This document shows, one piece after another, positions 15,499-17,438 of a stretch of DNA of 48,385 bases. A program made the translations under genes and the position numbers. Position 1 is the stretch's first letter. Each line of letters begins with the position of its first letter. The stretch lies in contig JAASSR010000006.1 of NCBI GenBank assembly GCA_021767785.1, positions 1-48,385 of the forward strand, written 5' to 3'. The notes under the pieces were generated by a model. The model was not told where the DNA came from and did no database searches. It saw only the letters and a program-made list of their open reading frames with translations. This DNA is from Methanolobus sp. Its GTDB lineage: Archaea; Halobacteriota; Methanosarcinia; Methanosarcinales; Methanosarcinaceae.

Positions 15499-16479
15499 TC
15501 AATTAGAAAAATTGATATTAATACCAAGAATATCCTTAGAACCTTCATGAATAGCCCGGGCGATCTCGGCACATCCAATTGCAGCACTCCACCGGTCAAG
15601 AACATGAACTTTTAAACCAAGGTGTTTCTCGATCTGCGCTACAACCTCAGGAAGCTCACCTACAGATCCTTCTATAATGATCTCACCTGTGGAAGCATAA
15701 TCCTTCATTAAGATCTGCATACCTGCAATTTCCATAGCAGCAAAAAGTGCTATTCTTTCAATTGCCAGTATTGCCTGTGGATCTCTGCATGATGACGCTT
15801 TAATAAGCTCATGTCGATTTTTAAAAAGAGTATGTTTGAGAACACCTGAATTTACGAACGCTTCGTTAGCGCGCATTCTTCCGGCATCCACATCCCTCAG
15901 AGCCCGGACATCCAGAGGTCCGTGCTGCAATCCGGGCGCAAAGATGCAGGCATCAATGGCTCCGACAATTTTACTGTCCGCAACAGCCAGGGTGACCGTA
16001 TTGGAACTGATATCCGAAAGGATGAAATCATTAAAACCAAGAGAAAAAGCATGATAGGCTATACCCACTTTTTCAGGACTGGTGGAATGTGAAAAGACAT
16101 TGAGACGGGAATCTGTACCACTATTTTCATGGATGCCGGGAATTACCACAGCAGGAATATCTGAGTGCTGCACTGCATCAAAAACACGGCTTCCTCCACC
16201 TGTCTTTTTACCGGCTCCCTCTATACTTTTAATTCCTCTGTTCTTAACCGCCTTTATATCCTCGATATCCCTTATACCATCACCCATTGAATAGGTCACA
16301 GCCATAAGAGATATTTCAGCACTTTGAACTCCGAAAGCATCTTCCATTTTTGAAACAAGAAGGGATTCTGACATCCCGGAGGCTTCTGTTCTTGGAATTT
16401 CAAGTTTCAAAACTCTACCATTGGGAAAAAGTGCAGCAAAACGCATTGCAGTTGTACCGTGATCAATTCCAATGAACAT
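15499..16479 (-). CDS. mmp12: Methanogenesis marker protein 12 (UPF0285)
   Basis: Another methanogen-specific family of unproven function, with an actin/Hsp70-like ATPase fold suggested by FIGIDHGTTAMRFA at the N-terminus, GIHENSGTDSRLNVFSH and the later FNDFILSDISSNTVTLAV segment. The 326-residue length is normal. I start at the ATG at 16479 since GGTGA lies before it; the GTG at 16488 is part of that ribosome binding site. It begins 11 bases after the DUF2103 gene ends on the same strand, and both are placed behind a palindrome-bearing promoter. The 3' flank (15403-15498) is AT-rich and separates it from the convergent IorA-like gene. Confidence 0.9.
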   Translation of the reverse strand: MFIGIDHGTTAMRFAALFPNGRVLKLEIPRTEASGMSESLLVSKMEDAFGVQSAEISLMAVTYSMGDGIRDIEDIKAVKNRGIKSIEGAGKKTGGGSRVFDAVQHSDIPAVVIPGIHENSGTDSRLNVFSHSTSPEKVGIAYHAFSLGFNDFILSDISSNTVTLAVADSKIVGAIDACIFAPGLQHGPLDVRALRDVDAGRMRANEAFVNSGVLKHTLFKNRHELIKASSCRDPQAILAIERIALFAAMEIAGMQILMKDYASTGEIIIEGSVGELPEVVAQIEKHLGLKVHVLDRWSAAIGCAEIARAIHEGSKDILGININFSN

Positions 16480-16490
16480 AATTCTCACCT

Positions 16491-16838
16491 TCAGTTATCG
16501 AGTAATGAAGAATTTATTTCTTCCATGATGCGTTCCCCTTCCTCAAAACTACCAACATTCGTAACTATACGCAGTTCCTGAAAAGAAGTACCGTGTGAAA
16601 GAAGAAGTCGCAGGTTCCCCCTAGCATCGGGTCTTTGTACCCTAGCTGTCAGCATACCCCCGGAGTTTCCTTTACCCTTTACAGTTACCACTGAAGGTAT
16701 CATTTTTTTTATCTCTGGATGCTGACTCACTAAAGATACTATTTTTTTACCATTACGGCCACCGATAATAGTAGTGTGTGAGCCTCCGAGTTTTGATTTA
16801 GGTTTTCTGACTCCGTTTGAGCTAATAGTATCTGTCAT
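16491..16838 (-). CDS. DUF2103-like protein, predicted metal-binding
   Basis: A 115-residue protein resembling the DUF2103 family, described only as predicted metal-binding. It shows KPKSKLGGSHTTIIGGRNG near the N-terminus and LLLSHGTSFQELRIVTNVGS near the C-terminus; the two histidines could be metal ligands but no cysteines are present. It is first in a two-gene unit with methanogenesis marker 12, which suggests a shared pathway. The ATG is about 28 bases from a TATA box (16863-16870) without ribosome binding site, so leaderless translation is expected. The start codon lies inside a perfect inverted repeat. Confidence 0.65.
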   Translation of the reverse strand: MTDTISSNGVRKPKSKLGGSHTTIIGGRNGKKIVSLVSQHPEIKKMIPSVVTVKGKGNSGGMLTARVQRPDARGNLRLLLSHGTSFQELRIVTNVGSFEEGERIMEEINSSLLDN

Positions 16839-16888
16839 TTTAATTGGAATGACAGGAAGTTGTATAAAATATTAATGGTCGAATGACA
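16832..16888 (-). promoter_or_regulatory. Promoter with palindrome over the start codon and three AATGACA half-sites
   Basis: CTGTCATT (16832-16839) and AATGACAG (16848-16855) are perfect eight-base arms with an eight-base centre. They overlap the DUF2103 start codon and the predicted transcription start. TATA is at 16863-16870, and a third half-site AATGACA lies beyond it at 16882-16888. This arrangement fits a repressor that blocks initiation. Confidence 0.6.
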
Positions 16889-17000
16889 ATTGATATCAGA
16901 AGAATATCCAATACTGCCAGAACATGAAAATTATAATTTAATAAGAAAACAGATTTGAAGATAAAAATATGAACTGAAAGAAAAGAACATATTCAGAAGA

Positions 17001-17438
17001 TCATATCTCCTGAATATTGGCCATGTCTATGAGTTTTATACCTGCATCATTGAGGATCTTAATGGCACCATCGATGTCATTTACCCTGAGGATAAGAAGA
17101 GCCTTCTCTGTCTTTGTGACAAAAGCATATGCATAATCAATATTAATACCCTTATCTCCAAGGACATCAGCTATCTTTCCCAGGCCTCCGGGAACATCTT
17201 CCATCTCCACTCCAAGTACACTTGTTTCGGAAACGGTAAATCCGGCATTATGAAGAACTTCATGTGCCTGATCCGGTTTATCCACGACCATACGAATGAT
17301 ACCGAAATCTCCTGCTTCGGCAATTGTGAATGCTCTTATATTGATGCCTGCCTTTCTGAAGTTTGCTGCAATATTAGCAAGACGACCGGGTTTGTTCTCA
17401 GCGAAAAGTGAGATCTGTTTGATGATTTTCTCTTCCAT
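17001..17438 (-). CDS. Tandem ACT-domain protein
   Basis: A 145-residue protein made of two ACT domains, small amino-acid-binding modules: residues 5-70 (QISLFAENKPGRLANIAANF) and 73-143 (ETSVLGVEMEDVPGGLGKIA). Both carry the Pro-Gly-x-Leu turn that lines the ligand site. Such stand-alone double-ACT proteins commonly lie beside phenylacetate-CoA ligase genes in archaea, as here (43 bases downstream of paaK, same strand), and I infer that it senses an aromatic amino acid or its product and tunes that enzyme. It is not the acetolactate synthase small subunit, which is longer and sits with ilvB. GGTGC precedes the ATG. Confidence 0.88.
   Translation of the reverse strand: MEEKIIKQISLFAENKPGRLANIAANFRKAGINIRAFTIAEAGDFGIIRMVVDKPDQAHEVLHNAGFTVSETSVLGVEMEDVPGGLGKIADVLGDKGINIDYAYAFVTKTEKALLILRVNDIDGAIKILNDAGIKLIDMANIQEI

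What the first reader, a model, noticed from the sequence alone, without database searches (positions are those of the whole stretch)
16491..16888. DUF2103-mmp12 promoter with three AATGACA half-sites and a palindrome over the start codon
Perfect eight-base arms (CTGTCATT/AATGACAG) enclose the predicted transcription start and the start codon, and a third half-site lies beyond the TATA box. This is one of the clearest operator-like structures in the window and controls two proteins of unknown function, one being a methanogen marker.
Basis: partly seen in the sequence, partly recalled or inferred. Interest (0 to 1): 0.6.

Follow-up and report, generated by a model that had tools for sequence, protein, structure and literature searches.

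The report
Conserved methanogen gene promoter, not palindrome
The small palindrome seen at the start of a methane-producing microbe's gene is really there, but relatives show that it is mostly an accident of protein coding; what evolution has kept is a different short promoter tag just upstream of the TATA box, found at this gene and essentially nowhere else in each genome.

Summary
The letters are as described: CTGTCATT-N8-AATGACAG (16832-16855) spans the start codon of a DUF2103 gene, 30 nt downstream of a TATA box, and a third TGTCATT lies at 16882-16888. The operator reading mostly fails. The perfect palindrome occurs once in the genome, and AATGACA is not enriched. In 25 other Methanolobus genomes the left arm is largely kept, while the right arm is simply Met-Thr codons: it breaks wherever residue 2 is Ser or Asn, with no matching change in the left arm (shuffle p=0.38 in the near clade). 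The third half-site occurs in no relative. What is conserved is (A/G)ACCA(C/T)(C/T)A-N4-TTTATA: ACCA and TTTATA are invariant in 26 of 26 genus promoters, and the element recurs with the same spacing upstream of DUF2103 in five other genera of Methanosarcinaceae. Genome-wide it is essentially confined to this promoter (20 of 25 genus hits; hits elsewhere are no commoner than the reversed-pattern control). The TATA-to-ATG distance predicts a near-leaderless DUF2103-mmp12 transcript. Best reading: a conserved archaeal core promoter with a gene-specific upstream element (activator site or extended BRE); the palindrome is a species-level coincidence of a conserved TATA-start spacer with coding sequence. 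Regulator unknown.

The parts
16491..16838 (-). DUF2103 gene (115 aa, PF09876)
15499..16479 (-). methanogenesis marker 12 gene (TIGR03281), 11 nt downstream of DUF2103, probably co-transcribed
   Evidence: same-strand adjacency in every Methanosarcinaceae DUF2103 locus checked
16873..16880 (-). ACCA-type upstream element GACCATTA; consensus (A/G)ACCA(C/T)(C/T)A, 4 nt before TTTATA. Conserved across genera and essentially confined to this promoter
16862..16869 (-). TATA box TTTTATAC (TTTATA at 16868-16863, invariant in 26/26), with the BRE position just upstream
16839..16861 (-). TATA-to-start spacer; clade consensus nACCTGTTGTCATTCCnnTTGAA, conserved in the genus at fixed distance from TATA
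16848..16855 (-). left arm of the palindrome, CTGTCATT; lies in the conserved spacer and is largely conserved as a non-symmetric element
16832..16839 (-). right arm of the palindrome, AATGACAG, i.e. A + ATG ACA G; explained by Met-Thr-Asp codons
16882..16888 (+). third AATGACA half-site; found in no relative

Best explanation
This is the promoter of a DUF2103-mmp12 operon in a Methanolobus species. TBP binds TTTTATAC and TFB binds just upstream of it. Transcription starts within a few bases of the ATG, giving a (near-)leaderless mRNA. An asymmetric element, (A/G)ACCA(C/T)(C/T)A, abuts the TFB site at fixed spacing and is essentially confined to this promoter in each genome. It most likely binds a gene-specific factor (an activator helping TFB/TBP, or the operon's own regulator); less likely it is an unusually long TFB contact. 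The palindrome arises in this species because the conserved TATA-start spacer (TGTCATTCC) faces the Met-Thr codons ATG ACA, and it is not itself the selected operator. Shown here by sequence: the promoter anatomy, its conservation, its single-locus character, and the lack of coupling between the arms. Inferred: the start site, co-transcription, and the bound factor.
For: TATA-anchored profile of 26 genus promoters: ACCA, the A at -5 and TTTATA are all invariant, while columns -70 to -14 carry about 0-0.7 bit. ACCACYAN4TTTATA gives 25 hits in 27 genomes, 20 of them at the DUF2103 promoter. Across 112 family genomes, ACCAYTAN4TTTATA gives 75 hits, 30 of them at DUF2103 (genera g1, g2, g7, g11, g12, g14); the other 45 are fewer than the roughly 75 reversed-pattern control hits (my tally of the table). 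Of the other hits inspected, some lie in coding sequence and the rest precede unrelated reading frames. In g14 the element-to-TATA spacing stays at 4 although the ATG lies about 20 nt further off, as expected of a transcription element. The distance from TTTATA to ATG is 28-31 nt in 26/26. In M. psychrophilus the BRE and TATA box lie about 19-22 nt from mapped starts and about 16% of transcripts are leaderless (PMC5378194). Arm coupling is absent: 98 observed pairs against 97.4 +/- 0.65 shuffled.
Against: No transcription start, binding or expression data exist for this promoter. The factor is not identified. Methanosarcina (g13), g5 and others keep the DUF2103-mmp12 pair without the element, so it is not needed for the function of the operon. 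The TATA-start spacer, including the left arm, is conserved too, so a factor contacting that region cannot be excluded. I did not profile other promoters of the genus as a matched control for how conserved an ordinary core promoter is.
Confidence: 0.6

Rival explanations
1. One reading: the palindrome is an operator for a dimeric repressor (here or in near relatives) that covers the start site and blocks initiation, with a third half-site upstream.
For: Perfect 8-nt arms at the right place. A 6-nt core GTCATT-N8-AATGAC is present in the window and in 11 of 16 near relatives. The left arm is conserved.
Against: The right arm equals the Met-Thr codons and breaks with Ser or Asn without compensation. 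The full set of 8 pairs exists only in this species. The third site is unique. The exact palindrome occurs once in the genome, so there is no regulon. Arms and spacer of this size are expected by chance at this density.
Confidence: 0.12
2. The ACCA element is only an extended, strong TFB-recognition element: a core-promoter feature without a dedicated regulator.
For: It abuts the BRE position at rigid spacing to TATA. No second half, dyad or regulon was found.
Against: If it were generally favoured by TFB it should recur at other strong promoters, but hits elsewhere are not above the reversed-pattern control.
Confidence: 0.2
3. The palindrome acts in RNA: a hairpin (about -12 kcal/mol predicted) hides the start codon, as a thermometer or attenuator.
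For: The 60-nt transcript folds into the 8-bp stem. Start-site switching and RBS-masking hairpins are reported in M. psychrophilus (PMC5378194).
Against: It needs a start at least 17 nt upstream of the ATG, only about 6 nt after the TATA box, or a second upstream promoter. The stem is not conserved and does not covary.
Confidence: 0.04

Closest known systems
Archaeal BRE/TATA core promoter giving a leaderless mRNA
   Same: TATA box, upstream BRE position, and TATA-to-ATG distance of 28-31 nt matching starts at the ATG
   Different: Carries an invariant ACCA element upstream of the BRE position that almost no other gene in the genome has
Archaeal activator sites adjacent to the BRE (for example the GvpE UAS of haloarchaea; from memory, a lead only)
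   Same: Short element directly upstream of the BRE at rigid spacing
   Different: No paired half-site seen, no regulon seen, factor unknown
Operators of dimeric archaeal repressors overlapping the start site (NrpR type; from memory)
   Same: Inverted repeat over the start region in the window species
   Different: Symmetry not conserved, right arm coding, no other genomic copies

Membership tests
Archaeal TATA/BRE leaderless promoter | TATA box at fixed distance upstream of the start codon | tested here: met
   TTTATA invariant, 28-31 nt from ATG in 26/26 genus promoters
Archaeal TATA/BRE leaderless promoter | transcription starts within 10 nt of the start codon | not testable with these tools
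   No start mapping; spacing is consistent with the 19-22 nt rule reported in PMC5378194
Dimeric-repressor operator | dyad symmetry conserved or covarying between species | tested here: not met
   No coupling: 98 against 97.4 +/- 0.65 pairs in the near clade; p=0.08 over all 26, driven by the two clades
Dimeric-repressor operator | additional half-site conserved | tested here: not met
   Third AATGACA matched at most 4 of 7 positions in relatives
Dimeric-repressor operator | recurs at other promoters of the genome | tested here: not met
   Perfect palindrome once in the genome; 7-nt arms twice against one control. Single-target operators exist, so this is only suggestive
Gene-specific upstream activator element | conserved non-coding element at fixed spacing to the core promoter | tested here: met
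   ACCAYYA-N4-TTTATA across six genera
Gene-specific upstream activator element | bound by a transcription factor that raises transcription | not testable with these tools
   Needs EMSA, footprinting or reporter assays

The most novel reading that the evidence does not exclude
A dedicated, so far undescribed transcription factor of Methanosarcinaceae recognises ACCA(C/T)(C/T)A next to the BRE and controls a single target, the DUF2103-mmp12 operon, linking it to methane metabolism; possibly the operon's own product takes part.
Probability: 0.3. Interest if true: 0.5.

Novelty: new member of a known kind. Interest (0 to 1): 0.32.

Why it matters
It replaces an eye-catching but poorly conserved palindrome with an invariant promoter element that can be tested directly. 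If a single-target factor reads it, that would give a handle on two conserved proteins of unknown function, one of them a methanogenesis marker.

Tried and rejected
First pattern RACCAYYA-N3-TTTATA had the wrong spacer and gave nothing; it was corrected to N4. A regulon for the TATA-spacer element (TTTATA-N6-10-TGTCATT): apart from the DUF2103 promoters, hits are at control level, and the recurrent ones inspected lie antisense across the start of a universal-stress-like gene or inside a PAS-like gene. DUF2103 as a DNA-binding autoregulator: no Pfam, PDB or fold match supports it (model pLDDT 77, no Foldseek hit below E=0.001). The ACCA box outside Methanosarcinaceae: not found upstream of haloarchaeal or other DUF2103 genes. 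Literature on DUF2103: none in the library.

Full report
What is there. On the minus strand the DUF2103 gene (16838-16491; PF09876, E=2.8e-36) is followed after 11 nt by methanogenesis marker 12 (16479-15499; TIGR03281, E=3.6e-110). The arms CTGTCATT/AATGACAG are perfect, 8 nt apart, at 16832-16855. The start codon is inside the right arm. A third AATGACA lies at 16882-16888.

Is it more than chance? Only mildly. AATGACA occurs 15 times in the window against 12.8 expected. Perfect 8-nt arms with gaps up to 20 nt give 23 centres against 16.4 +/- 4.2 in shuffles; about 7% of shuffles of this promoter hold one; 12% hold some 7-mer three times, though this named 7-mer never reached three copies in 2000 shuffles. 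The perfect palindrome occurs once in the genome, and the relaxed one twice against one for the reversed control, so there is no regulon.

Conservation of the parts. I compared 26 promoters of the genus. Left arm: TGTCATT or close variants in most, at fixed distance from TATA. Right arm: identical to A-ATG-AC(N) wherever residue 2 is Thr. Where residue 2 is Ser (L005, L013, L017, L018) or Asn (L019-L027) it breaks, and the left arm does not follow. Shuffling right arms among species gives the same number of complementary pairs in the near clade (98 observed, 97.4 +/- 0.65, p=0.38) and p=0.08 over both clades, which differ as clades. The Thr wobble base varies (A, G, T), so the 8-nt perfection belongs to this species alone. 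The third half-site matches at most 4 of 7 positions in any relative. The symmetric operator is therefore not what selection keeps.

What selection keeps. Anchored on TTTATA, the columns upstream of -14 carry about 0-0.7 bit over the 26 promoters, while ACCA at -11 to -8, A at -5 and TTTATA are invariant. The element ACCAC(C/T)A-N4-TTTATA yields 25 hits in 27 genus genomes, 20 of them at this promoter; the window's own copy is the variant GACCATTA. Over 112 family genomes ACCA(C/T)TA-N4-TTTATA has 75 hits, 30 at DUF2103. The 45 others are fewer than the reversed-pattern control (about 75 by my tally), and those inspected lie in coding sequence or before unrelated reading frames. It reaches g14, whose DUF2103 protein is about 50% identical. 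There the ATG lies about 20 nt further downstream but the spacing of the element to TATA is unchanged, as expected of a DNA element of transcription rather than of translation. Methanosarcina (g13), g5, g4, g9 and one part of g7 lack it, and it is degenerate in g10. It was not found outside the family. The naming of g13 as Methanosarcina rests on genome size and my own knowledge of the family, not on a record title.

How it most likely works. TTTATA lies 28-31 nt before the ATG in all 26. In M. psychrophilus the BRE and TATA box lie about 19-22 nt from mapped starts and about 16% of transcripts are leaderless (PMC5378194), so a start at or within a few bases of the ATG is expected (inference). 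mmp12 follows on the same strand, close behind, in every Methanosarcinaceae locus examined, so one operon is likely (inference). The ACCA element sits just upstream of where TFB should bind. Because it is nearly confined to one promoter per genome, a gene-specific factor is favoured over general TFB preference (inference). The TATA-to-start spacer is also conserved in the genus, and its TGTCATT happens to be the reverse complement of the Met-Thr start, which produces the palindrome.

Rivals. A repressor operator used in this species remains possible but has no comparative support. An extended BRE is the main alternative to a dedicated factor. An RNA hairpin is predicted to be stable (-12 kcal/mol) but needs an unexpected upstream start and is not conserved.

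Limits. No expression or binding data. Genomes are one per species, and the contents of sub-clades are not independent. No matched set of other promoters was profiled as a control. The regulator was not sought by profiling. DUF2103 has no known structure relative (the model was built from nine close sequences, pLDDT 77), so autoregulation can be neither supported nor excluded.

Noticed in passing
16491-16838 and L110-L129: In haloarchaea and other euryarchaea DUF2103 is the C-terminal part of a protein of roughly 200-290 aa with an N-terminal CxxC...CxxC zinc-ribbon-like stretch; the window protein lacks that part and has no cysteine, so 'predicted metal-binding' (the Pfam title) may not apply to it.
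   Followed up: partly
15499-17438 and family loci: ACT-domain gene, DUF2103 and mmp12 keep order and strand in nearly all Methanosarcinaceae loci checked, but the haloarchaeal and other outside DUF2103 loci show no mmp12 next to DUF2103, so DUF2103 is not tied to methanogenesis as such.
   Followed up: partly
L051, L053, L055, L058, L068 (g7) and L040, L046, L047 (g10): The ACCA element looks decayed (GTCAGTAATG in part of g7; AACCACGG close to the start codon in g10), apparent losses that could help to date or test its function.
   Followed up: no
16689-16709 and 16728-16748: Imperfect 21-nt direct repeat (81%) inside the DUF2103 coding sequence, probably chance in lysine-rich coding sequence.
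   Followed up: no
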